Assembly: GCA_021286645.1 (NCBI GenBank)
Contig: JAJTBZ010000097.1
Span: 186,001 to 250,000 of the forward strand
DNA length: 64,000 nt
Source of the DNA: Ignavibacteria bacterium
Lineage (GTDB): Bacteria > Bacteroidota > Ignavibacteria > Ignavibacteriales > Ignavibacteriaceae
Direction of reading: 5' to 3'
The position numbers and the translations under genes were made by a program. The notes under the pieces are model-generated. The model had not been told where the DNA came from, made no database searches, and worked only from the letters and a program-made list of their open reading frames with translations. Each line of letters starts with the position of its first letter. Positions within the stretch are counted from its first letter, which is position 1. Positions 32,688-59,759 of this stretch are shown here, in pieces.

Positions 32688-33176
32688 TTATTCGTAATCG
32701 GCTGGAACAGGCCTGATTTTAAGAAGAAGAGCTAACAGAGTTTTATAGCTTAAATAGGCAACTACAGGAGCTACAATACACCACGCACCAATTGCCTGGA
32801 GGGTAACTACCCATAATATTGATAGAGAATGCATCGGGCTGTGACCAACCATGGCGGCGATCTGCGGGAGAGAATAGTGGAGCTGTTCTACCCTGAAAAT
32901 AACTGCACCCAGCCGCATAAAAGGAATAATAAGCATTAAATGCACCGGGGTGAGTGAATAGTTTATCATTTGCATCAGTGGAAGATTTAACCGAAAACGG
33001 ATAGCAACGAAGGCGCACATAAGCGTAGTTGCCCCAAAAATGGGGAAAATGCTTATTGTGAAAGCCCCTGCCAATGCCAGCGCAATTTCATGCGGTGTGG
33101 TTCCCTGCGCGAGTAGGCGCATTACGGGGGCAAGGTATTTATTGGCGAAAAGCGCCTTTATCCTTTTTACTATCAT
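32688..33176 (-). CDS. DUF2062 membrane protein
   Basis: 162 residues, small integral membrane protein. The family signature is present: LLAQGTTPHEIALALAGAF near the N-terminus, then IFPIFGATTLMC, and two further hydrophobic hairpins with INYSLTPVHLMLIIPFMRLG. DUF2062 proteins sit in the inner membrane and have no established function, though they often lie near lipid or glycosyl-transfer genes. A second copy is encoded at 59295-59759, with about the same length and layout. It is separated from the desaturase gene by 141 bp. Confidence 0.8.
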   Translation of the reverse strand: MIVKRIKALFANKYLAPVMRLLAQGTTPHEIALALAGAFTISIFPIFGATTLMCAFVAIRFRLNLPLMQMINYSLTPVHLMLIIPFMRLGAVIFRVEQLHYSLPQIAAMVGHSPMHSLSILWVVTLQAIGAWCIVAPVVAYLSYKTLLALLLKIRPVPADYE

Positions 33177-33317: not shown

Positions 33318-34064
33318 CTATGCCTCTTGTGTTGATCCGGAAGACAGGTGTATAATATGAAGCCAATGTAATAGTTTTAATACCGGGTATACCGGATCAA
33401 TTTCAAAAAAACGGACTGCAAAATTAGGACGTGAAGGATATTTATGGTGATTATTCTGAAACAATTCGCCTAAAGCCAGAAAATCGAAGGCAAGTGTATT
33501 TTGTGATTTGTCGTTAGTATCGACAAAATTACGGTACCCGTACTTGTGTCCGGCCCAATTCACAATCGCGCCATGAATTGGCCCCATAAGAAAATGGCAC
33601 GGGAGCAGTAAAAACATCCACCATTGTGTTGCAAAGAAGTAATAAAAAGTTACATATCCAATTCCCCACAAAACGCGGTGGCCCCAGCCATCGGCAAAGT
33701 TTTCAAAACTTTCCCAGCGGGGGATGTTTTTTGTAAAGTTTTCGCCCGGTTTTATTTTGTTTTTAACCAAATCAAGGTAGTATTGCTTTGTTTTCCACAT
33801 CATACCAAAAACACTTCTGAAAAAATGAGGGGAGTGCGGATCTCTTTCCGTGTCGCTAAAAGCGTGGTGGAGCCGATGCATAACCGCGTATGCGCGCGGG
33901 TTAAGGAATGATGAACCCTGGAAAATATAGGTGGAAATATAAAAGAACCGCTCCCAGAATTTTTTCATACTGAACATTTTATGAGCCCCGTACCGGTGCA
34001 GGAAAAAAGTCTGGAAAAACAATGAACCGAACCAATGAGTAATAAAAAAAATCGCTATAACCAT
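33318..34064 (-). CDS. Membrane fatty-acid desaturase
   Basis: 248 residues from the ATG at 34064, chosen because of the strong AAGGAGAGG Shine-Dalgarno 5-6 bp upstream. Three histidine boxes bind the di-iron centre: HRYGAHK (H-x4-H), HRLHHAFSD (H-x2-HH), and NNHHKYPSRPNF near the C-terminus. Hydrophobic segments between them (VIAIFFITHWFGSLFFQTFF, YVTFYYFFATQWWMFLLLP) place it in the inner membrane. It resembles bacterial acyl-CoA/acyl-lipid delta-9-type desaturases, using oxygen to add a double bond, which implies life with some oxygen. Its product could feed the methyltransferases encoded at 54-59 kb (inference). Confidence 0.85.
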   Translation of the reverse strand: MVIAIFFITHWFGSLFFQTFFLHRYGAHKMFSMKKFWERFFYISTYIFQGSSFLNPRAYAVMHRLHHAFSDTERDPHSPHFFRSVFGMMWKTKQYYLDLVKNKIKPGENFTKNIPRWESFENFADGWGHRVLWGIGYVTFYYFFATQWWMFLLLPCHFLMGPIHGAIVNWAGHKYGYRNFVDTNDKSQNTLAFDFLALGELFQNNHHKYPSRPNFAVRFFEIDPVYPVLKLLHWLHIIHLSSGSTQEA

Positions 34065-34276
34065 GCCTCTCCTTTTGAAACGTATACTGTGCAAATCTCT
34101 ATACGCAGAGGGAACTATAAAAGCCGGGGATTAGTTCCAGTATTGACCGCGGAAGAAAGCGCAGTAAAAAGGGTAAAAAAAATGCCCCCGTGTCCTGAGT
34201 CATTGATTTACCGGGCGGGAGTTTGTATTTTACGAAAGATTCTTAAGAATCGTATAATTGTACAGAGAAAGGTAAA

Positions 34277-48883: not shown

Positions 48884-51697
48884 TTACTTGATCAGTAACA
48901 TTTTTTGCGTGGCTGTATAACTGCCTGCCTGCATACGGCAGAAATATAGGCCGCTTGGCAGGTTCGCGGCGTTGAACACTGCCGAATACTTACCGCTTTG
49001 TTTAACCTCATTTACCAGTACCTGTACCTGCCTGCCCAGCGGGTCGTATACAATGAGGGATACAAGTACCGGACTCGCTACACTATAGCTAAGCGTAGTG
49101 GAAGGATTGAATGGATTCGGGTAATTCGTTTCGAGTTTGTATTCTGTACATACGGTACCGGGTAGAATTTCGATGGCTGTAATTGCCGGGTTTGTAATTA
49201 CAGTCGGTCTGCCGGCTGTAACAGTTGTATTGAGCAGTCTGCCTGAAGTTGCCCTATCACGCATGGTAAAACTGCGGCCAATGCACTGAACCGAAACAGG
49301 GTATGCCGCGCCGGTAATGTTGGCAACAACCATTCCTTCGTGATCGGATTCTGCATTCCGCTGACTTGAAAATCTGCTATCAAAAACTCCCGCGGGGCCA
49401 AGTGGCGGAAGATCAAAATCGGTAGTGTTCTCTGCACGGTTCAGTAAAAACAATTTAGCCGACGCACTATTGGCATCAGTTAGGGTAATGGTGGTTGTAA
49501 TGCCAGGAAGACTATTTTCGCGGCTTCTTTCTACCAATGCCTGGCGATTCGTGGGAATAGTTAGAACTCCATTCTGGCTTGCACGTACCCAATAGCCTTT
49601 GCCGCTTTGCAGAGTGGATGCTATGTAATATGCTCCATTGTATCCATAGAACTGCGAATTTATTATGCCAGCCGGCACTGTAATTATTGAACTCGTCGGT
49701 ACATCGTTCTGAAAAATACCAATGAGATTCCAGCCAGCCGAAAGATTTACCTGATTACCGGCAGAAGTTCCGCAAACATTTACTGATGCGGCGTCAGTCA
49801 TCCTGATCCAGTATCCTTTTCCCGGTGAAAGGGAGGGATTGATCTGGTACCCATTCAAATAACTGTACGCGGGTGAATTCGCGACCGGGAATAAACTTGT
49901 AACCGATGAATCAGCGGGCCGTACCGGAACAGAAATGATATTCCAGCCGGCTGCCATTGTTATGGTACCACAAGGACTGGTTATAGAAAATATTGCATCG
50001 CTAATGTCATTGAGAGCGAGGTTATGAGAATCGGATATTCGTATTTTACACTGGGCGGAAACTGCTGCCGGAACATTCCATGAGAATGTTCCCGTGCCGG
50101 CAAGAACAGCCTTGCTGATATTTTGCCACTGGGTGCCATTGTCAGTAGTGTAATCGATACGAACTGAATCGATACCGGTACTGTTCCAACGAATCTGGTG
50201 AATGGAACCGGCAGCCCATGCTTCACCGCCATTAGGTGATGTTACGGTAACGGCGGCTGCAGCTTGTGTATCAACTATGAAACTCCACGCTCCTCGGGGG
50301 GCAGGTAAAGGTTTTACAATAGTTCTGCCGCTGTTAGATGTCGCGGATATATAATAAAATACTTTTATCCCAACACTTTGTACGGGAATCTGGGAGATAA
50401 AAGTATCCGCGCCTACGGGGTACATAGGAACCTGATTATACCCGTGAATAGTATCGATGCTCCACCATAGCGTTGCTGAGTTGATGCCTGAACGTGAATC
50501 GATATAGGATTTTACCTGAAATGGATTGGTAATACCGGCGACGGTCCGTATGGGCGCGTGCGAAATGACTATCGGCTCACGTACACCGACTTCTTTAGTT
50601 ATACAGTGGATTGCACCGAGAGCGGTAATGCTTTGGTTGCAATCGATTCCAACCACATTATAGCCTGGCATTGCCTCGCGATAAATGCGAAGAGCCGTGG
50701 TATCATATTTTGCTTCGTACGTTGGTACTATAACTGTCTTATTAATAATAGATGAATTGGTATACGTACGGTAGTCACCGCTGTTTGAAGGGTAACGGCC
50801 CTGGGCATCGGGCGGCATGAGAACGCGGACTACCTTGTAATCGCGGCCATAGCACGTTTTAAAATTCGATAAAATATATTGTAAATTTGCTTCGATCTGC
50901 GGCCCGTCTGCCACACCGGTAGGGTACTGACCCACGAGAAGTGTTTCTTCATCAAGGAGCTTAATATGCATATCGATATGGTGTATTTGATCGTAGGGGA
51001 GAGTCTCGAGCTTTATATACCGGTTAATTCCCATGAATTTTTTCATAATGGTATCTATGGACGCGGAGGTTTGCGTCGGATTCTCATCAATGATTAGTTT
51101 GGAGGAGAATCCGGTACCGTTGCCATCGGCCATAAAATTACCGCCGGTATGGATTAGATTATAGGGCGCTGTTGTTGTTTGGTATAGCGGCAGTCCCTGC
51201 ATATTTGCAAATACCGAGGGTACCAGATCATCGTTGGGGCGGGGGCGGTTATAAATCCAATCAATAATGAACAGGCTGTCGCAGTTGTTTGTATAGACTG
51301 ACCACGGGCCATAATCGCGGCACCATACTGAATTGAAAGAAGCCACAATAAATTTTAGATTGGTAAGCGGCACACCGCCGCTTTGCAGGTAACTCTTTAC
51401 CGATGCCGAATCACTGCATACAATGTATACAGTGCATTCCGTTTGAGCGAATTTAACAATCTGCCGTAATATAGAAGTATATGAAGTCCAGGCAATCATA
51501 ACGCCCTCTAATTCTTCCCATTCCGCCATGGTTCGTACGGGGGAAGCAGGGGGAGTGGTAAAACCTAAAATACTCTTGGGTGAATGATAGGTTTTCATCA
51601 TCTGCTTTTCTATTTCGGTCATCTGGTGAGGCAGATCCTGAGCGAATACATTCAATGAACAAACAAGGAGTATGCTGAAGATTACGAAGATTTTCAT
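48884..51697 (-). CDS. T9SS-exported peptidyl-arginine/agmatine deiminase-like protein
   Basis: 937 residues. After a signal peptide (1-19, ending VFAQ) comes a PAD_porph/agmatine deiminase domain (about 55-400). Its catalytic set is Asp128 (WCRDYGPW), His240-x-Asp242 (QIHHIDMHI) and Cys365 (GAIHCITKE). Next is an Ig-like part (about 470-580) with SPNGGEAWAAGSIHQIRW, then two copies of a GWN-I/L-I repeat module (about 590-700). A type A T9SS sorting domain closes it (YPNPFNPSTTLSYSV ... QKMLLIK). It would act outside the cell, releasing ammonia from arginine-type groups. It is far longer than agmatine deiminases (about 350 aa) but like Porphyromonas PAD in plan. Confidence 0.85.
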   Translation of the reverse strand: MKIFVIFSILLVCSLNVFAQDLPHQMTEIEKQMMKTYHSPKSILGFTTPPASPVRTMAEWEELEGVMIAWTSYTSILRQIVKFAQTECTVYIVCSDSASVKSYLQSGGVPLTNLKFIVASFNSVWCRDYGPWSVYTNNCDSLFIIDWIYNRPRPNDDLVPSVFANMQGLPLYQTTTAPYNLIHTGGNFMADGNGTGFSSKLIIDENPTQTSASIDTIMKKFMGINRYIKLETLPYDQIHHIDMHIKLLDEETLLVGQYPTGVADGPQIEANLQYILSNFKTCYGRDYKVVRVLMPPDAQGRYPSNSGDYRTYTNSSIINKTVIVPTYEAKYDTTALRIYREAMPGYNVVGIDCNQSITALGAIHCITKEVGVREPIVISHAPIRTVAGITNPFQVKSYIDSRSGINSATLWWSIDTIHGYNQVPMYPVGADTFISQIPVQSVGIKVFYYISATSNSGRTIVKPLPAPRGAWSFIVDTQAAAAVTVTSPNGGEAWAAGSIHQIRWNSTGIDSVRIDYTTDNGTQWQNISKAVLAGTGTFSWNVPAAVSAQCKIRISDSHNLALNDISDAIFSITSPCGTITMAAGWNIISVPVRPADSSVTSLFPVANSPAYSYLNGYQINPSLSPGKGYWIRMTDAASVNVCGTSAGNQVNLSAGWNLIGIFQNDVPTSSIITVPAGIINSQFYGYNGAYYIASTLQSGKGYWVRASQNGVLTIPTNRQALVERSRENSLPGITTTITLTDANSASAKLFLLNRAENTTDFDLPPLGPAGVFDSRFSSQRNAESDHEGMVVANITGAAYPVSVQCIGRSFTMRDRATSGRLLNTTVTAGRPTVITNPAITAIEILPGTVCTEYKLETNYPNPFNPSTTLSYSVASPVLVSLIVYDPLGRQVQVLVNEVKQSGKYSAVFNAANLPSGLYFCRMQAGSYTATQKMLLIK

Positions 51698-51816: not shown

Positions 51817-52581
51817 TTATTTTGGCCGGGTAAATGGGATAAGTGCCGGGGTTCGGGATTTGTATAAATCCCATTGGGGGTTGTTGGTATATTTTTGTTC
51901 AAGCATAGGGATGCCGCTTACTTTTACTATAAGCACATTGAGCACTGCCGGGCCAATAAGTGAGTAGAAGCTGGTAAACGCCGCGGAAAAAATGCCAATG
52001 CCCCACCAGAGCATTATTTCACCAAAATAATTAGGATGTCTCGATACGCTCCATAAGCCGGTTGTCATTAACTGCCCCCGGGAGGAAGGTAGATTTTTAA
52101 ATTGGTAAAGCTGGAAATCGGCGACGCTTTCAAAAATGAGTCCGGTTAGGTACAATAAGAAACCGATACCGGCAACCAGGTAATTCCCGGTATTGTTATG
52201 TGTGAACATAAAGAAAATAGGTGCGGCTATAATCATCATTAGAACTCCCTGGAGCATGAATACGCGCAAGAATGCATTCAGTGCCTGCCGCTTACCCCAT
52301 GCTTCGCGAAAAGCAGTATATCTCTTATCCTCTCCTTTGCCAATTGATCTTGCAAGTATAAAAGTAGCTAATCGGAGAGCCCAAATAACTATCATGCCAA
52401 AGAGTATTATTTGGGACGGAAAAATCACCGTAGCAGTTAACATAAGGGTTAAACAAATTACTACAAATCCCGGTCCCCAGAAAATATCGATAATTGAATT
52501 GTTTTTCAGCCGCTGAGCAATAATGAAAATCATTATCAATGAAAGGAATATAACGGCAAATGAGGCCATAACCGCTTGCAT
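51817..52581 (-). CDS. DUF1295 (steroid 5-alpha-reductase-like) membrane protein
   Basis: 254 residues with about six hydrophobic helices. The DUF1295 marks are present: IDIFWGPGFVV near the start, the SRHPNYFGEIMLWWG motif near 185, and FYSLIGPAVLNVLIVKVSGIP. The family is related to 5-alpha-reductases and isoprenylcysteine methyltransferases, acting on lipids at the membrane. The start overlaps the stop of the MerR gene as TAATG, so it is translationally coupled to the regulator and belongs to the same lipid cluster, though on the opposite strand to the main operon. Confidence 0.82.
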   Translation of the reverse strand: MQAVMASFAVIFLSLIMIFIIAQRLKNNSIIDIFWGPGFVVICLTLMLTATVIFPSQIILFGMIVIWALRLATFILARSIGKGEDKRYTAFREAWGKRQALNAFLRVFMLQGVLMMIIAAPIFFMFTHNNTGNYLVAGIGFLLYLTGLIFESVADFQLYQFKNLPSSRGQLMTTGLWSVSRHPNYFGEIMLWWGIGIFSAAFTSFYSLIGPAVLNVLIVKVSGIPMLEQKYTNNPQWDLYKSRTPALIPFTRPK

Positions 52582-53531
52582 TATATTGCCTCGGTTTTAT
52601 CTGCTTGTGAGTGCACAGGCATGTTGGTAATTTTCTTCCGAATAACTGATAATGTTTGGCGGTATTGCCTGGCACTGGAAGTTACAATAGCCCGTATACC
52701 AAGTAAAGCAGAATGGTATCCACGGGCAGCCCGTCCGGAAGCTATAATAAAAGCATCCTCGCCGAGCAGAGAGCGAAGCCGCGGGATCTGCAATAATAAA
52801 GCCCCATCGTCTGCCGGATATACTAAACTAAGATGAACACAACGCGAGTGTAACTGTATGGCAGCAGATGCTATTTCCTCTACAGGCAGGCCCGGTCCAA
52901 GGTAAATGGTGCGCCAACCCTCAGATGAGGCAATAATTGAGGCCAGAACCGCCTCTAATTCGTGAAATTGTCCTTCAGGGGCGGCAATCACAATAGCCGG
53001 GGAGCTATTAGAGGCACTATATGAGGTTGATATCCTCGCGAGGAAAAATTTAATTGCGGATGAGGCAAAGTGCTCCTGTGCCACGCGCATTTCACCATCA
53101 TTCCACATATTACCAATTTTCTCTATCAGCGGAATGATAATCTGCTCGATAACTTCAATTACAGGTTTCTCAACGAGTACGGTACCAAGTAATTTGTGCA
53201 GTTTAGGGGAGTCGTATTCCCGTATAGCCTGAATACATTCGTCAATAAGCCCGATGAATTCGGATTGCATATTTTTTTTGGGTATATCCGGCCCGCCTAT
53301 TACCCGAAGCTGTTCGAGTTGCTCAAGCGAATGACCGGCAATATCACCAATTCGATGTCCTTCCTGTGTTAATTGCCCCAACAGTGTTAGTTTATCTAAA
53401 TCTGAATCGGTGTATAATCGTCTGTTGGACTCAGTCCTTTGTGGTTTAAAGGCCTCATATCGTTTTTCCCATGCCCGTATGGTCAGCTCGGGTACTCCCG
53501 AAATTCGGGAGACAGTTTTAATTGTGTGCAT
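52581..53531 (-). CDS. MerR-family regulator with B12-binding domain (CarH/LitR-like)
   Basis: 316 residues. An N-terminal MerR helix-turn-helix (about 3-70: IKTVSRISGVPELTIRAWEKRY) is followed by a four-helix B12-cap domain with the W-x9-EH motif (Trp143, Glu153-His154; MWNDGEMRVAQEH). A Rossmann-like B12 domain has the cobalt-ligand histidine at 190 in APEGQFHELEAV. These are the marks of adenosylcobalamin photoreceptors CarH/LitR, which bind DNA in the dark and let go in light. The glycine of the usual HxxG motif is Glu here. It is divergent from the lipid operon and the likely regulator of it; direct repeats lie in the shared intergenic region. Confidence 0.85.
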   Translation of the reverse strand: MHTIKTVSRISGVPELTIRAWEKRYEAFKPQRTESNRRLYTDSDLDKLTLLGQLTQEGHRIGDIAGHSLEQLEQLRVIGGPDIPKKNMQSEFIGLIDECIQAIREYDSPKLHKLLGTVLVEKPVIEVIEQIIIPLIEKIGNMWNDGEMRVAQEHFASSAIKFFLARISTSYSASNSSPAIVIAAPEGQFHELEAVLASIIASSEGWRTIYLGPGLPVEEIASAAIQLHSRCVHLSLVYPADDGALLLQIPRLRSLLGEDAFIIASGRAARGYHSALLGIRAIVTSSARQYRQTLSVIRKKITNMPVHSQADKTEAI

Positions 53532-53895
53532 AGCAATATATTAGACAATAATTATACATATTTGAGTAACAATTTCAATTTGTAAAGAGTTCAAACTGCT
53601 GAAATACAAGTAAAAATACAAAATCTTCCAACGGGAAAGCTAATATATTATAATGTAAATGGTTATCGGCATCCCGTTCCGCTCTACATTTACCGATTCC
53701 GTATTGTCTCCATCCCCTTATTTAGGCGCAGGGAACCAATAATATTATACAAATGTTATACAAACATAAATCAATTTTCCAATTTGTCAAAAATAAATTA
53801 ATGACAAATGATAAAATCAGCGAAAGGCAAGGAAATGCAGGTTGCATTGGAGTTAATTACACTGGCAGCCCGGGAAGGTCGGTTACCGGTTCACG
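53532..53895. promoter_or_regulatory. Divergent control region with 11-bp direct repeats and an inverted repeat
   Basis: The region between the MerR gene and the lipid operon. Two tandem 11-bp units, TTATACAAATG and TTATACAAACA, stand at 53745-53766. A third TTATACA lies at 53552-53558 close to the MerR start. An inverted repeat, ATTTGTCA/TGACAAAT, stands at 53782-53809. CarH-type proteins bind direct repeats spaced 11 bp that contain TACA, so these are candidate operators. No gene lies here. Confidence 0.55.
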
Positions 53896-54243
53896 ATGAA
53901 TAAAAATCAGCTTCTAATTGTTTTTTCAATCCTTTGGTTCTACATCGTTTACACGGTAATAACCACGAGCATGCAAAGCAATCTGTTCACCGAATGGAAT
54001 TATCTTGCATCAATTCCATGGATGCGGGCCACGCTGGTTGATTTTTATATTAACGTTGTGGCCATTTTTACATGGATTGCCCTTCGTGAGCGCTCCAAAC
54101 TTGCGTTAACATTCTGGTTACTCGGTCTGGTATTTCTTGGCAGTATTGCTACTACAACCTATATAATTGTCCAATTAATAAAATTAAAAGCGGGCGAGCC
54201 GGTTAGCAATGCTTTCAGCCCCCTTGCTTACCGAAGGAGATAG
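53896..54243 (+). CDS. DUF1475-like small membrane protein
   Basis: 115 residues, three hydrophobic helices. The loop WNYLASIPWMRATLVDFYINVVAIF with PWMRATLVDFY resembles DUF1475 (a membrane family with a PW-x-x-ATL-x-D-x-Y motif), and WIALRERSKLALTFWLLGLVFLGSI fits the same pattern. First gene of the lipid operon, ending 1 bp before the next start. Function unknown. Confidence 0.6.
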   Translation: MNKNQLLIVFSILWFYIVYTVITTSMQSNLFTEWNYLASIPWMRATLVDFYINVVAIFTWIALRERSKLALTFWLLGLVFLGSIATTTYIIVQLIKLKAGEPVSNAFSPLAYRRR

Positions 54244-54244
54244 T

Positions 54245-55276
54245 ATGAATTACGAAGTGTTATTACATAAAGATTTATTGCCGGACTTTGCAATTCGTTA
54301 TGGAATCAAACGATTGTTGCATGAGCGGCTGGCGGAAGAATCTGAACGGGATAAAGAATTGCAACAGTTGAGATTTATGAAATTGGTTGAACAGTTGAAA
54401 GCTACACCAATGGCAATAAATACTACAGAGGCGAATCAACAGCATTATGAAGTTCCTGCTGAGTTTTATATGAAAACTCTTGGGAAAAGGCTGAAATATA
54501 GCTGCGCGTATTGGGATGAAGGAACGCCTGACCTGAACACTGCAGAAGAAAAGATGCTTCAGTTAACATGCGAGCGGGCAGGAGTGAGGAATAATGAAAC
54601 AATTTTAGAACTCGGCTGCGGTTGGGGCTCGTTAACGTTATATATGGCTCAGTATTATCCTCAGTCAAACATTGTGGCAGTAAGTAACTCACATAGTCAG
54701 AAGCGCTTTATTGATGCGCGTTCGGCGGAACTGGGCCTGAGCAATGTAACAGTAATTACTGCAGATATCAACCAATTTACGACCGATGTTCAATTCGATA
54801 GAATCGTGTCTGTTGAAATGTTTGAACACGTACGCAATTACGAGTTGCTTTTCGGAAAAGTTTATTCGTTCCTGAAACCGGGAGGGCACTTATTTGTTCA
54901 CATTTTTACCCACAAGGATTTCGCCTATCTGTTTGATATTAAAGATGAAAGCGACTGGATGGCAAAGTACTTTTTTACCGGCGGCATAATGCCCAGCAAC
55001 CACCTGCTGCTGTACTTTGCACAAGGTTTTCGCACGCTTGGGCATTGGGTTGTGAATGGAACCAATTATGGCAAAACAGCCGAAGCCTGGCTGGCAAATA
55101 TGGATGCAAACGAAACCGCTGTAAAAGAGATTTTTGCCAATATTTATGGTAAAAACTCTGTTACCGGGTGGTGGGTTAAATGGCGTGTGTTTTTTATGAG
55201 TTGTGCTGAATTATGGAATTATAATGAAGGTAATGAGTGGTACGTGAGTCATTATTTATTTCAAAAGAACGGTTGA
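54245..55276 (+). CDS. Coclaurine N-methyltransferase-like SAM methyltransferase (CFA-synthase superfamily)
   Basis: 343 residues from the ATG at 54245 (AAGGAG 5-6 bp upstream). It follows the plant coclaurine N-methyltransferase family closely: QHYEVPAEFYMKTLGKRLKY, the SAM motif ILELGCGWGSLTLYMA, VSVEMFEHVRNYE, and then the long diagnostic block YFFTGGIMPSNHLLLYF, HWVVNGTNYGKT, WWVKWRVFFMSCAEL. In bacteria such genes sit next to FAD oxidoreductase, DUF1365 and CFA-synthase genes and have been linked to the singlet-oxygen response and furan fatty acids in Rhodobacter sphaeroides. A lipid substrate is therefore more likely than an alkaloid. Confidence 0.8.
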   Translation: MNYEVLLHKDLLPDFAIRYGIKRLLHERLAEESERDKELQQLRFMKLVEQLKATPMAINTTEANQQHYEVPAEFYMKTLGKRLKYSCAYWDEGTPDLNTAEEKMLQLTCERAGVRNNETILELGCGWGSLTLYMAQYYPQSNIVAVSNSHSQKRFIDARSAELGLSNVTVITADINQFTTDVQFDRIVSVEMFEHVRNYELLFGKVYSFLKPGGHLFVHIFTHKDFAYLFDIKDESDWMAKYFFTGGIMPSNHLLLYFAQGFRTLGHWVVNGTNYGKTAEAWLANMDANETAVKEIFANIYGKNSVTGWWVKWRVFFMSCAELWNYNEGNEWYVSHYLFQKNG

Positions 55277-55278
55277 AT

Positions 55279-55998
55279 ATGAAAAACAGTATTGTACTTG
55301 TTATTGCAATATTTTTCTGCGTCTGGATGAATGGCGGGGCACAATCCAAACCTGTAGTTGGCAAAGCATACGATCTGAAATCAGCTTCATATTTATATTC
55401 GGAAATAACCAGTATTTTTCCCCATGATGGTAAATCATCGAAAATGGTTACAAGATATACGGATACTGACGGCCGTACATTTGCAGAACGTGTAATACAT
55501 CTGGGAAACAATCGTACCTGTCCCGATTTTACCCTGAATGATTTCCGCTCCGGTTATATTGAGGGAGCGAAGAATGAAGCGGATGGAAAGGTACGTGTGT
55601 ATAGCCGCAAGTCATTTAATGACCCTGTTGAAGAGAAATATTTAGTGATTCCCAAACCGTATGTCATAGATGGCGGGCTGAATTTCTATATACGCGATAA
55701 CCTTTCAGCATTGCTGAGGGGCGAAATTCTTTGCTTTAATTTTGTAGCACCCGCAAAGCTGGACTATTACCGTTTCCGCGTTACGAGGGCTGACACTCAA
55801 AAGAAAATTGCTTCGAATGAGATTATACTGAAACTACAGCCGGATAGTTTTATTTTACGCGCGCTGGTATCCCCGATCTTTATTACCTATTCACTGGAAA
55901 CAAAAGAGCTGCTAATGTATAAAGGCTTATCGAATATTAACGATAACGCGGGGAAAAGTCTGATTGTTTCAATTGATTTTACGGAGAACTATAAGTGA
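55279..55998 (+). CDS. Exported protein of unknown function
   Basis: 239 residues from the ATG at 55279, 2 bp after the previous stop; the longer frame from 55237 overlaps the methyltransferase. A signal peptide (KNSIVLVIAIFFCVWMNGGAQ) precedes a strand-rich body (SASYLYSEITSIF, RYTDTDGRTFAERVIHLG). No family is recognised. Its place inside a lipid-modifying operon suggests a periplasmic helper such as a lipid carrier, by inference only. Its stop overlaps the next start. Confidence 0.7.
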   Translation: MKNSIVLVIAIFFCVWMNGGAQSKPVVGKAYDLKSASYLYSEITSIFPHDGKSSKMVTRYTDTDGRTFAERVIHLGNNRTCPDFTLNDFRSGYIEGAKNEADGKVRVYSRKSFNDPVEEKYLVIPKPYVIDGGLNFYIRDNLSALLRGEILCFNFVAPAKLDYYRFRVTRADTQKKIASNEIILKLQPDSFILRALVSPIFITYSLETKELLMYKGLSNINDNAGKSLIVSIDFTENYK

Positions 55999-57260
55999 TG
56001 GAAAAACTTGCGATAGTTGGAACAGGAATCGCCGGCATGGGCGCTGCATGGCTGTTAAAAGAAAAATATGATATCACCTTCTATGAAAAAAATAATTATC
56101 CAGGCGGCCATACTAATACGGTGACCGTTGATGAAAACGGGAAACCTGTATTTATTGATACGGGATTCATGGTGTTTAATAAAGTTACATACCCCAACCT
56201 GGTAAAGTTATTTGATATTTTACAGGTACCCATTAAACAGACGAGCATGTCATTCAGCGTGCAACATCTTCCTTCCGGGCTTGAGTATTGCGGCTCGGGG
56301 TTGAACGGGCTATTCGCGCAACGGAAAAACTTGTTTAATCCAGGCTTCATCTCTATGCTTTTTGAAATAAACCGGTTCAACTCCGAAGCATTGGAATTAC
56401 TTGCCGGGGATGCAGACAGGGGACTTACGCTTGGCAGTTATATCAGACAGAAAGGCTACCACTCCGAGATACTCGAAAAATACCTGCTGCCGATGAGCTC
56501 CGCTGTATGGTCAACACCGCCAAATAAAATGCTCGAATTCCCTGCTGCTACGTTAGTGCAGTTTTTCTACAATCATGGCTTTCTCGGATTAAATACTCAA
56601 CATCAATGGTACACTATTGTAAATGGGAGTCAGGCGTACAGGAGTAAATTACTTGGCAGTTTCGCGCATAATTTAAAACTGAAAAAGGGTATAGTAAGAA
56701 TTGAGAGAATCCCGGAAGGTGTGGAGTTGATAACAAATGACGGGCAGCGGGAGACGTTTGATAAAGTAATTATTGCTTCGCATGCCGATGAGGCATTGGC
56801 AATGCTCGATATGCCCACTGTTCTTGAACAACGGCTGCTTACGCCATTTAAATATCAGCACAATACGGCAACACTTCACACGGATACAGCCGTAATGCCC
56901 AGGGCAAAACGGGCCTGGTCATCATGGAATTACCGGATAGCCAAAAGCAATAACGATGTATTCGCATCGGTTATATACTATATGAACAGCCTGCAACAAG
57001 TATCTGATACAAAGGATTATTTTGTTTCGATTGATGATCCCGGTGCGGTGCGGGAGGAGCATGTTCTCAGGAAGATTGATTATACACATCCGCTGTTTAA
57101 TTCAAAAACTGCTGCTGTTCAGCCGGAACTGTACAAATTGAATATGCAAAATAATAATACGTATTTCTGCGGGAGTTATTTCAAGTACGGTTTTCACGAG
57201 GACGCGTTTACAAGCGCGGTATCCCTTGCTAAAATATTGGATCCGGGCCTTGTATGGTGA
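55998..57260 (+). CDS. FAD/NAD(P)-dependent oxidoreductase (amine-oxidase fold)
   Basis: 420 residues. The FAD-binding Rossmann motif is IVGTGIAGMGAA near the start, with the Glu of FYEKNNYPGGHTNTV. The C-terminal amine-oxidase end reads TYFCGSYFKYGFHEDAF. The branch is that of the DUF1365-associated oxidoreductases; a related desaturase (UfaD) in Rhodobacter furan fatty-acid synthesis introduces a second double bond (family-level analogy). The ATG at 55998 overlaps the preceding stop; a GTG at 55995 is the alternative. The next gene starts 7 bp inside its end. Confidence 0.85.
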   Translation: MEKLAIVGTGIAGMGAAWLLKEKYDITFYEKNNYPGGHTNTVTVDENGKPVFIDTGFMVFNKVTYPNLVKLFDILQVPIKQTSMSFSVQHLPSGLEYCGSGLNGLFAQRKNLFNPGFISMLFEINRFNSEALELLAGDADRGLTLGSYIRQKGYHSEILEKYLLPMSSAVWSTPPNKMLEFPAATLVQFFYNHGFLGLNTQHQWYTIVNGSQAYRSKLLGSFAHNLKLKKGIVRIERIPEGVELITNDGQRETFDKVIIASHADEALAMLDMPTVLEQRLLTPFKYQHNTATLHTDTAVMPRAKRAWSSWNYRIAKSNNDVFASVIYYMNSLQQVSDTKDYFVSIDDPGAVREEHVLRKIDYTHPLFNSKTAAVQPELYKLNMQNNNTYFCGSYFKYGFHEDAFTSAVSLAKILDPGLVW

Positions 57261-58030
57261 GCTGTATATATGAGTGTGTAGTTATGCATAAACGCCTTGT
57301 GTTCAAGAAGAATCACTTTAACTACAGGTATTTTATGTTTTATATTGATTTGGACGAGGCTGTAGAACTGCATAATAAACATCGTTTCTTTAGTGTGAAT
57401 AAATGGAACCTGTTTAGCTTGCGAGATCGTGACCACATGATATTTGATGCCCCGGGAATAAAAAGCAATATCATTAAGTATCTTAATGCAAATGGTATAT
57501 CCACCGGGGATATGAAAGTACATTTGTTAACCAACACGGCTGTGCTTGGTTATAATTTTAATCCCGTATCATTTTATTTCTGTTTTGATAAACAGGGTAA
57601 GCCCGTGTGCGTGGTTCCTGAAGTAGGAAACACTTTTGGCGAGTTGAAACCATATTTGGTAGGAAATGAAAATTTACAGGAAAATACGTTTAGTAAACGC
57701 GTGAAAAAAGAATTTTATGTATCACCCTTTATAGCGCATGATACATTTTTTGATTTCAATATCAACGTGCCGGGAAAAAAGCTAAGTATTCATATTGATG
57801 ATTATAAGGATGATGAAAAGATATTCATGTCACATCTTTCCGGCGTGAGAATGCCGCTTTCCGATGCGTTACTGTTGAAATACGCACTCAGGTATCCATT
57901 GGTAACCCTAAAAATTATTGCGCTTATACATTATCAGGCGCTGAAATTATTCATAAGTGGATTACCATTCTTTAGAAAAATTGAATTCCCGGAATTACAA
58001 ATTGGAGTTATGCAAAAATGGAAAAGTTAA
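57254..58030 (+). CDS. DUF1365 domain protein
   Basis: 258 residues. A family-typical N-terminus (SCIYECVVMHKRLVF, FNYRYFMFYIDLDEA) and NPVSFYFCFDK with FYVSPFI are clear DUF1365 marks. The function of DUF1365 is unknown, but it accompanies FAD oxidoreductase and CFA-synthase genes in many bacteria. The start overlaps the preceding gene by 7 bp and the end overlaps the next by 13 bp, so the trio is tightly coupled. Confidence 0.85.
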   Translation: MVSCIYECVVMHKRLVFKKNHFNYRYFMFYIDLDEAVELHNKHRFFSVNKWNLFSLRDRDHMIFDAPGIKSNIIKYLNANGISTGDMKVHLLTNTAVLGYNFNPVSFYFCFDKQGKPVCVVPEVGNTFGELKPYLVGNENLQENTFSKRVKKEFYVSPFIAHDTFFDFNINVPGKKLSIHIDDYKDDEKIFMSHLSGVRMPLSDALLLKYALRYPLVTLKIIALIHYQALKLFISGLPFFRKIEFPELQIGVMQKWKS

Positions 58031-59283
58031 TTGATATAATAGAACCTGTTCACAAATCATCGACAGGCATTATGATACAGTATTACGAAAAAATCATACG
58101 AAGGATTTTGCAGGGAATGAAAAAAGGCAAGTTAACGGTTCAGTTCCCCGATGGTTCCATAGAAAATTTTGGTGGGCAGGATTCTGAAATCACGGCTCGA
58201 ATTACTATCCGGACTCCTGAGTTTTTCAGGAAGGTAGTTCTTTATGGCGATATTGGTTTCGGCGAAGCGTATGTGGATGGCGACTGGCAAACCGATGATA
58301 TTACCGCGGTTATCTCCTGGATGATAGCAAATATAGAGAACAATCCCGGTATAAGCGGTTCAAAAAATTCTGTCAGCCTGTTCGGGCTGTTCAGTAAAAT
58401 AAACAGGCTTTTTCATCTCGCGCGTAAAAACTCCATACGCGGAAGCAGGAAAAATATCAGCGAGCACTACGACTTAAGTAATGAGTTCTTTGCCCTCTGG
58501 TTAGATAAAAGCATGACTTACTCTTCTGCCATCGATCTAGAACACTCTGGTGATTTATATACCGGGCAGCAGGCGAAATACCGGCGGCTTTGTGAGCAGT
58601 TACAAATTACCGATACCGATAGTATCCTTGAAATAGGCTGCGGGTGGGGAGGCTTTAGCATGTTTGCTGCTGCTGTTTACGGGTGTAAAGTAACTGCAAT
58701 AACCATTTCCCGTGAGCAGTACGCGTACGTGAAACGGCTCATTGCAGAGAACGGAATGGAACATAAGATAACCGTATTGCTGCAGGATTATAGGACACTT
58801 ACCGGGAAATTTGATAAAATTGTTTCAATTGAGATGCTTGAGGCAGTCGGGCATGAATTTTTGCCGGTATATTTTAGAAAAATCCATGAGTTGTTAAGCA
58901 ACGGGGGCGCTGTTGCTTTGCAGGTTATCACTTCTCATGATTGTAACTACGATAAATTGCGTAAGGGAGTTGACTGGATACAAAAATATATTTTCCCCGG
59001 CTCGTTGTTGCCTTCAATAGGGGCAATACAGGCAGCAGTTCAAAAAACAGGGAACCTGACTTTACATGACGCGAAAAACTTTGGCATCGATTACGCGGAA
59101 ACCCTGCGCATGTGGCGGGAACGATTTAACGAGCGCGTGCATGAGGTGAAGCAGCTAAATTTTGATGATGATTTTATCCGAAAATGGAATTACTATTTAT
59201 CGTATTGTGAGGCGGCATTCAGGATGAGGAATATTAACCTGATGCAGCTTGTTTATACACGCCCTAACAATGTACACATCTGA
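58018..59283 (+). CDS. Cyclopropane-fatty-acyl-phospholipid synthase-like methyltransferase
   Basis: 421 residues. The CFA_synth N-terminal part (about 30-130, YGDIGFGEAYVDGDWQTDD) is followed by the SAM domain with ISEHYDLSNEFFALWLD, ILEIGCGWGGFSMFAA, KIVSIEMLEAVGHEF and the lipid-site block IFPGSLLPSIGAIQ. The fold methylates cis double bonds of phospholipid acyl chains, giving a cyclopropane or a branched product. In the furan fatty-acid pathway a relative (UfaM) does the latter. With the other methyltransferase in the same operon, two separate methylations or a methylation plus a rearrangement are possible (inference). Confidence 0.88.
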   Translation: MEKLIDIIEPVHKSSTGIMIQYYEKIIRRILQGMKKGKLTVQFPDGSIENFGGQDSEITARITIRTPEFFRKVVLYGDIGFGEAYVDGDWQTDDITAVISWMIANIENNPGISGSKNSVSLFGLFSKINRLFHLARKNSIRGSRKNISEHYDLSNEFFALWLDKSMTYSSAIDLEHSGDLYTGQQAKYRRLCEQLQITDTDSILEIGCGWGGFSMFAAAVYGCKVTAITISREQYAYVKRLIAENGMEHKITVLLQDYRTLTGKFDKIVSIEMLEAVGHEFLPVYFRKIHELLSNGGAVALQVITSHDCNYDKLRKGVDWIQKYIFPGSLLPSIGAIQAAVQKTGNLTLHDAKNFGIDYAETLRMWRERFNERVHEVKQLNFDDDFIRKWNYYLSYCEAAFRMRNINLMQLVYTRPNNVHI

Positions 59284-59294
59284 GTTTGAACTCA

Positions 59295-59759
59295 ATGAAA
59301 AGGTTTTTTCGTAATAAGTATATCGCGCCAATATCCCGGTTACTGATGCAGGGAATAACGCCGAAAGAGATCGCGCTTACCGTGGCAGGTTCCTGTGCTT
59401 TGGCAATTTTCCCTGTTATCGGCGCTACCACTCTGCTGAGTTCGCTGTTTGCCCTGCGTTTCAAATTAAACGTACCATTGGTGCAATTAATTAACTACAC
59501 ACTTGCCCCGCTTCAAATAATATTGCTCGTGCCGTATATGAAAATTGGAATGTTTTTCTTTGGTGCAGGCGGTGTAACCTACTCCACGGAGCAGATACTG
59601 CGGCTTATAACAACTGATCCGTTTGGGGCAATCAGTGTACTATGGACCGCGACAATGTGCGCTGTTGGCATCTGGCTGATTACCGCGCCCGCTATAGCCC
59701 TGGTGCTCTATAAAATCACTCTGCGAATAATCCTGAAACTACTACCCGCCCGGGCGTAA
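59295..59759 (+). CDS. DUF2062 membrane protein (second copy)
   Basis: 154 residues from the ATG at 59295. A paralog of the protein at 32688-33176, with the same KYIAPISRLLMQGITPKEIA opening and IFPVIGATTLLSS segment. It closes the lipid operon 11 bp after the CFA-synthase-like gene. A lipid-related membrane role is suggested by the neighbours but not known. Confidence 0.78.
   Translation: MKRFFRNKYIAPISRLLMQGITPKEIALTVAGSCALAIFPVIGATTLLSSLFALRFKLNVPLVQLINYTLAPLQIILLVPYMKIGMFFFGAGGVTYSTEQILRLITTDPFGAISVLWTATMCAVGIWLITAPAIALVLYKITLRIILKLLPARA

What the first reader, a model, noticed from the sequence alone, without database searches (positions are those of the whole stretch)
53896..59759. Lipid operon with two methyltransferases, FAD oxidoreductase and DUF1365: possible furan or methylated fatty acids
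The coclaurine-methyltransferase-like gene, FAD oxidoreductase, DUF1365 and CFA-synthase-like gene are tightly overlapped, with DUF1295 coupled to the regulator. The same kinds of genes are used in the Rhodobacter sphaeroides singlet-oxygen response and furan fatty-acid pathway. A methylation, desaturation and oxygen-insertion order is plausible. Which gene does which step is not shown by sequence. The desaturase encoded at 33 kb could provide the unsaturated chain.
Basis: partly seen in the sequence, partly recalled or inferred. Interest (0 to 1): 0.6.

Follow-up and report, generated by a model that had tools for sequence, protein, structure and literature searches.

The report
Light-switched furan fatty acid operon
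This stretch holds a compact set of genes that very probably lets a bacterium build protective furan-containing (probably dimethylated) fatty acids in its membrane, apparently switched on by light through a vitamin-B12-type sensor next door; each part is known from other bacteria, but this arrangement looks new.

Summary
In detail: 53896-59759 is a tight operon, divergent from a MerR-B12 regulator and DUF1295. It is a furan fatty acid (FuFA) cassette, and the steps can be assigned by orthology to Rhodopseudomonas genes equivalent to the experimentally tested UfaD-UfaO-UfaM and FufM: FAD oxidoreductase = UfaD, DUF1365 = UfaO, CFA-like = UfaM, coclaurine-methyltransferase-like = FufM (second, ring methylation). 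The CFA-like protein sits in the UfaM clade (support 100/99) and shares four active-site changes with it. DUF1365 and the FufM-like gene occur in exactly the same 7 of 247 genomes of the phylum, always in one cluster. The regulator keeps the CarH cobalamin motif, and the intergenic region carries two 11-bp CarH-type repeats, conserved in a relative and occurring once in each of the two genomes. New here: all four FuFA enzymes in one cluster beside a CarH-type photoreceptor (instead of RpoE-ChrR), and DUF1295 as a recurrent fufM neighbour. Product, light response and DUF1295 function are inferred; a cyclopropane product is not excluded.

The parts
51817..52581 (-). DUF1295 membrane protein (steroid-reductase/PEMT-like), recurrent neighbour of fufM
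   Evidence: PF06966 220 bits; within about 6 kb of fufM/ufaO in 16 of 18 fufM loci, directly beside fufM in 11
52581..53531 (-). CarH/LitR-type MerR + B12-binding regulator (putative AdoB12 photoreceptor repressor)
   Evidence: PF13411 + PF02607; matches T. thermophilus CarH; W-x9-EH at 143 and axial His at 190 kept
53745..53768 (+). putative CarH operator: two tandem 11-bp repeats (TATACA at 53746 and 53757)
   Evidence: matches published repeat nnnnTnnACAn (PMC9304148); conserved in G062; core pattern occurs once in each of the two genomes
53896..54243 (+). DUF1475 small membrane protein
   Evidence: PF07343; homologues at the same place in four relatives
54245..55276 (+). fufM candidate: coclaurine-NMT-like methyltransferase, predicted to methylate the furan ring
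   Evidence: 43-45% identical to the single such protein of four Rhodopseudomonas species; groups with it 92/90; start codon
55279..55998 (+). unclassified protein with an N-terminal signal-like sequence
   Evidence: no Pfam, NCBIfam or PHROG match; homologues beside fufM in G062, G236 and alphaproteobacterial locus L180
55998..57260 (+). ufaD: FAD oxidoreductase, predicted methyl-acyl desaturase
   Evidence: PF01593/PF13450; 37-39% identical to Rhodopseudomonas UfaD over about 428 aa
57254..58030 (+). ufaO: DUF1365, predicted O2-dependent furan-forming enzyme
   Evidence: PF07103 E=3e-72; 34-37% identical to Rhodopseudomonas UfaO; 16 invariant residues over 15 proteins
58018..59283 (+). ufaM: CFA-like acyl methyltransferase, predicted first methylation
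   Evidence: clade with Rhodopseudomonas UfaM 100/99; C139S, G236E, H240A, H266Q shared with that clade
59286..59759 (+). DUF2062 membrane protein
   Evidence: weak PF09835 hit; G062 operon also ends in a DUF2062 gene
33318..34094 (-). fatty acid desaturase, predicted source of the unsaturated chain; displaced from the operon
   Evidence: PF00487; orthologues (60-77%) head the operon in four relatives; only desaturase in the genome
32688..33176 (-). DUF2062 paralogue beside the desaturase
   Evidence: 44% identical to the operon's DUF2062

Best explanation
A self-contained furan fatty acid cassette acting on phospholipid acyl chains. The desaturase (33 kb) makes a cis double bond; UfaM (58018-59283) transfers a methyl from SAM to that double bond, giving a methyl-trans-monoene; UfaD (55998-57260) desaturates it to a conjugated methyl-diene; UfaO (DUF1365) inserts an O atom from O2 and closes the furan ring; FufM (54245-55276) adds a second methyl, giving a dimethyl furan chain. 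In the dark the AdoB12-bound CarH-type regulator holds the divergent promoter region at the two 11-bp repeats; light releases it, so the membrane gains a singlet-oxygen scavenger when light makes it useful. Shown here: gene content, order, orthology, co-inheritance, regulator motif, operator-like repeats. Inferred: the reactions (from tested R. sphaeroides/R. palustris orthologues), the light response, the dimethyl product.
For: Published genetics/biochemistry: UfaM, UfaD, UfaO sufficient for the monomethyl furan and FufM for the dimethyl form (PMC7380195); FufM is 38% identical to AT4G33110 (PMC10940516). Here: the order ufaD-ufaO-ufaM equals that of Rhodopseudomonas and RPA2571-2570-2569; tree placement; shared active-site changes; fufM-like gene and DUF1365 in exactly the same 7 of 247 genomes, hypergeometric 1e-13 ignoring relatedness, always clustered; in an Alphaproteobacteria sample 7 of 8 fufM genomes have DUF1365, four within 5 kb; desaturase at the head of the operon in 4 of 6 relatives; CarH residues and conserved repeats.
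Against: No lipid data for this organism or any relative in its phylum. The exact sequences of R. sphaeroides UfaM/D/O and R. palustris CGA009 FufM were not in reach; Rhodopseudomonas congeners stand in. MT1-FufM support (92/90) is below the strict threshold. Cotton GhCPS1 has the same Ser/Gln changes and still makes cyclopropane (PMC3132707). The residue after the CarH Trp (Thermus 'WH') is Asn here and Lys in G062. Only two of the repeats fully fit the CarH consensus, and only two of the seven clusters have a CarH-like gene beside them. One alphaproteobacterial genome (G299) has fufM without DUF1365.
Confidence: 0.76

Rival explanations
1. The CFA-like enzyme makes cyclopropane chains and the FAD/DUF1365 proteins modify or support these, as in plant FAD-CFA fusion proteins.
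For: Cotton GhCPS1, a FAD-CFA fusion with Ser and Gln at the positions of E. coli C139 and H266, makes cyclopropane fatty acids in yeast (PMC3132707).
Against: The window protein falls in the UfaM clade, apart from E. coli, Aquifex and mycobacterial cyclopropane synthases, and travels with DUF1365 and a FufM-type gene, which cyclopropane synthesis does not need. The Agrobacterium FAD/CFA pair gave no cyclopropane in yeast.
Confidence: 0.08
2. The end product is a methyl-branched (unsaturated or saturated) chain without a furan: UfaM methylates, a reductase (possibly DUF1295) saturates.
For: DUF1295 is related to steroid double-bond reductases and is a recurrent neighbour; 10-methyl chains elsewhere come from a methyltransferase plus an FAD protein (PMC5660069).
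Against: DUF1365/UfaO and the UfaD-type amine-oxidase-like FAD protein are present; the FAD protein has no match to PF01565, the family expected for TmsA-type reductases from general knowledge. A FufM-type enzyme has no role in this scheme.
Confidence: 0.06
3. MT1 and DUF1295 methylate a lipid head group or another nitrogen substrate (as plant coclaurine NMTs do) and only share regulation with a monomethyl-furan pathway.
For: MT1 is clearly homologous to plant N-methyltransferases (E=8e-69 to coclaurine NMT) and keeps the E-x2-EH motif; DUF1295 has weak PEMT similarity.
Against: Rhodopseudomonas has one such protein per genome, it fits the description of the tested furan methylase FufM, and it is closer to MT1 (43-45%) than to plant NMTs (31-34%); strict co-occurrence with DUF1365 in the phylum.
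Confidence: 0.1

Closest known systems
R. palustris RPA2571-2570-2569 (UfaD-UfaO-UfaM) plus separate RPA0924 (FufM)
   Same: Same four enzymes and same order of the three core genes (PMC7380195; Rhodopseudomonas orthologues)
   Different: fufM is at another locus there, beside DUF1295 in the congeners examined; here it is in the operon, with DUF1475, an unclassified protein, DUF2062 and a CarH-type regulator
R. sphaeroides RSP1091-1087 operon and ufaM (RSP2144), RpoE-ChrR regulon
   Same: UfaD and UfaO homologues; pathway tied to singlet oxygen (PMC7380195, PMC6852236)
   Different: ufaM unlinked, control by RpoE-ChrR; here a CarH-type repressor, and only two short single-cupin ORFs of the genome match the ChrR cupin family
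Pseudomonas LitR (PplR/PmlR) light regulon with ufaM
   Same: A LitR/CarH-family regulator next to light-induced ufaM and an FAD oxidoreductase gene (PMC9758184)
   Different: There class II LitR acting with LOV proteins; here the cobalamin-binding motif is kept
CarH of Thermus/Bacillus/Myxococcus
   Same: W-x9-EH, axial His, 11-bp tandem repeats (PMC9304148)
   Different: CarH targets described there are carotenoid genes; here a lipid-modification operon
Arabidopsis lipid-droplet AtUFAMD1/AtUFAO1/AtFUFM1
   Same: Homologous enzyme set (PMC10940516)
   Different: UfaM and UfaD fused in plants, genes dispersed

Membership tests
FuFA core pathway (UfaM-UfaD-UfaO) | DUF1365 protein orthologous to UfaO | tested here: met
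   E=3e-72 to PF07103; 34-37% to Rhodopseudomonas UfaO
FuFA core pathway (UfaM-UfaD-UfaO) | Amine-oxidase-like FAD protein orthologous to UfaD, beside UfaO | tested here: met
   37-39% identity over about 428 aa, overlapping genes in the same order
FuFA core pathway (UfaM-UfaD-UfaO) | CFA-like methyltransferase of the UfaM clade | tested here: met
   Clade 100/99 with Rhodopseudomonas UfaM; shared residue changes. R. sphaeroides UfaM itself not compared
FuFA core pathway (UfaM-UfaD-UfaO) | Methyl-diene and furan acyl chains formed under O2 | not testable with these tools
   needs expression and GC-MS
FufM furan methyltransferase | Coclaurine-NMT-like protein grouping with Rhodopseudomonas FufM | tested here: met
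   43-45% identity; grouped 92/90 against plant NMTs; support moderate, CGA009 RPA0924 itself not compared
FufM furan methyltransferase | Converts monomethyl to dimethyl furan | not testable with these tools
   needs assay
Cyclopropane fatty acid synthase | Five bicarbonate-site residues C139, E239, H266, I268, Y317 (E. coli) | tested here: not met
   Ser and Gln at 139 and 266, the other three kept; but cotton CPS with the same changes is active
CarH/LitR B12 photoreceptor | W-x9-EH and axial His of the cobalamin domain | tested here: met
   WNDGEMRVAQEH at 143, His190 aligned with Thermus CarH
CarH/LitR B12 photoreceptor | Tandem 11-bp operator repeats nnnnTnnACAn | tested here: met
   Two full repeats at 53746/53757, conserved in G062; known operators have three or four, some only one or two full ones
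CarH/LitR B12 photoreceptor | AdoB12 binding in the dark and release by light | not testable with these tools
   needs purified protein
TmsAB 10-methyl fatty acid system | TmsA-type FAD-binding (PF01565) reductase | tested here: not met
   FAD protein matches PF01593/PF13450 and not PF01565; the TmsA family assignment is from general knowledge

The most novel reading that the evidence does not exclude
A light-switched, complete dimethyl-furan-lipid cassette outside the Proteobacteria, controlled directly by an AdoB12 photoreceptor, starting from its own desaturase (so with a ring position or chain type that may differ from the vaccenate-derived furans), and with DUF1295 as an unrecognised fifth component of the pathway.
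Probability: 0.35. Interest if true: 0.65.

Novelty: new variant of a known kind. Interest (0 to 1): 0.55.

Why it matters
Furan fatty acids are antioxidants of wide occurrence whose bacterial biosynthesis was worked out in two alphaproteobacteria; a compact cassette with all four enzymes offers a portable source, a second group of enzymes to study UfaO (a DUF1365 protein without a solved relative), and a direct link between B12-based light sensing and membrane protection. The recurrent DUF1295 neighbour makes a function for that DUF testable.

Tried and rejected
Structure of DUF1365: no PDB relative by sequence; single-sequence AlphaFold2 gave pLDDT 33, discarded; the relatives I had came from sources the folding tool does not accept, so no alignment was submitted; a scan of viral contigs for usable relatives found none. 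ORF5 has no family. Recent foreign origin: GC and GC3 of the operon genes lie near the rest of the window (UfaO somewhat lower), so composition gives no clear sign of it, although the distribution is patchy. ChrR control: only two short single-cupin ORFs in the genome match the cupin family. Rhodopseudomonas genomes were reached by way of a bacteriophytochrome query because CGA009 and R. sphaeroides could not be named directly.

Full report
Observation. The window 53896-59759 holds a plus-strand run of DUF1475, a CMAS/coclaurine-NMT-like methyltransferase (MT1), an unclassified protein with a signal-like N-terminus, an FAD amine-oxidase-like protein, DUF1365, a CFA-like methyltransferase and DUF2062. 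Neighbouring genes are a few nucleotides apart or overlap by up to 13 nt after start correction (MT1 at 54245, FAD at ATG 55998). Divergent, and overlapping each other by 1 nt, stand a MerR-B12 regulator and DUF1295.

What the parts are. In R. sphaeroides and R. palustris the furan pathway is UfaM (methylates vaccenate), UfaD (FAD protein, desaturates the methyl chain), UfaO (DUF1365, uses O2 to form the furan) and FufM, which makes the dimethyl furan (PMC7380195). FufM is 38% identical to Arabidopsis AT4G33110 (PMC10940516), a coclaurine-NMT-like protein by my own knowledge, so the 'coclaurine' gene of the window is the natural FufM candidate.

Test against Rhodopseudomonas. Four named Rhodopseudomonas species were reached. 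Each has ufaD-ufaO-ufaM in the order of RPA2571-2569 and one strong MT1 homologue (E below 1e-85), 43-45% identical to MT1 and next to DUF1295. A maximum-likelihood tree of 32 methyltransferases puts the window CFA-like protein in a clade with Rhodopseudomonas UfaM and operon-borne Streptomyces and Pseudoalteromonas proteins (100/99), apart from E. coli Cfa, Aquifex CFA synthase, mycobacterial CmaA1 and Rhodopseudomonas paralogues; MT1 groups with FufM (92/90) and both with plant NMTs (100/100). All 13 members of the UfaM clade have Ser, Glu, Ala and Gln where every other CFA-type protein in the set has Cys139, Gly236, His240 and His266. Two of these are bicarbonate-site residues, but cotton GhCPS1 has the same Ser and Gln and makes cyclopropane (PMC3132707), so the residues mark the subfamily, not the product. 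UfaD and UfaO trees put the window proteins with those of the phylum relatives (100/100 and 96/98).

Relatives. In 247 genomes of the phylum DUF1365 occurs in 7 and strong MT1 homologues in exactly the same 7; chance probability about 1e-13 without correction for relatedness. All six other clusters hold MT1, FAD, DUF1365 and the CFA-like gene in this order. In four the cluster begins with a desaturase 60-77% identical to window 33318-34094, the only desaturase of this genome. DUF1365 was not found in the other sampled genomes of the window's own family, so the cassette is patchy. In an Alphaproteobacteria sample 93 of 190 genomes have DUF1365 and 8 have MT1-type proteins, 7 of them together with DUF1365; in four of those the two lie within 5 kb. 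DUF1295 lies within about 6 kb of fufM or the ufa genes in 16 of 18 fufM loci, directly beside fufM in 11. It also sits in or beside ufa operons without fufM (Streptomyces, Phyllobacterium).

Regulation. The regulator matches Thermus CarH over both domains and keeps W-x9-EH and the axial His. CarH operators are tandem 11-bp repeats nnnnTnnACAn (PMC9304148). The intergenic region has TATACA at 53746 and 53757; G062, the relative that also has the regulator, has TATACA and TGTACA 11 bp apart in its intergenic region. Period 11 was unusual against shuffles in both (reached by 2 and 6 of 200), and the core pattern occurs once in each of the two genomes. Only two of the seven clusters have the CarH-like gene beside them. 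G062 also carries a glutathione peroxidase between regulator and DUF1295, fitting a photo-oxidative theme. Control of ufaM by LitR-family proteins and light is known in Pseudomonas (PMC9758184), there through class II LitR and LOV proteins.

Assessment. The kind of system is known; what looks new is the grouping of all four enzymes and, in relatives, the desaturase in one operon, the pairing with a CarH-type photoreceptor, the lineage, and DUF1295 as frequent company. The paper library searched gave no report of furan fatty acids or of this cluster in such bacteria, which is weak evidence because most subscription papers are missing. The taxon was not determined; a Por-type sorting domain suggests a Bacteroidota-like lineage (inference).

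Noticed in passing
55279-55998; L180 5519-6463: Unclassified, probably secreted protein between fufM and ufaD, with homologues beside fufM in G062, G236 and an alphaproteobacterium: an undescribed family tied to fufM.
   Followed up: partly
32688-33176 and 59286-59759: Two DUF2062 paralogues, one beside the desaturase and one ending the furan operon, suggesting that the desaturase left the operon together with a duplicated neighbour.
   Followed up: partly
53781-53808: Perfect inverted repeat ATTTGTCA-N12-TGACAAAT between the CarH repeats and the first gene; possibly a second regulator's site.
   Followed up: no
L008 5402-5881: Glutathione peroxidase between the CarH-like gene and DUF1295 in the relative G062.
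   Followed up: no
48884-51697: Secreted peptidyl-arginine deiminase-like protein (PF04371) with a Por secretion tail next to the locus.
   Followed up: no
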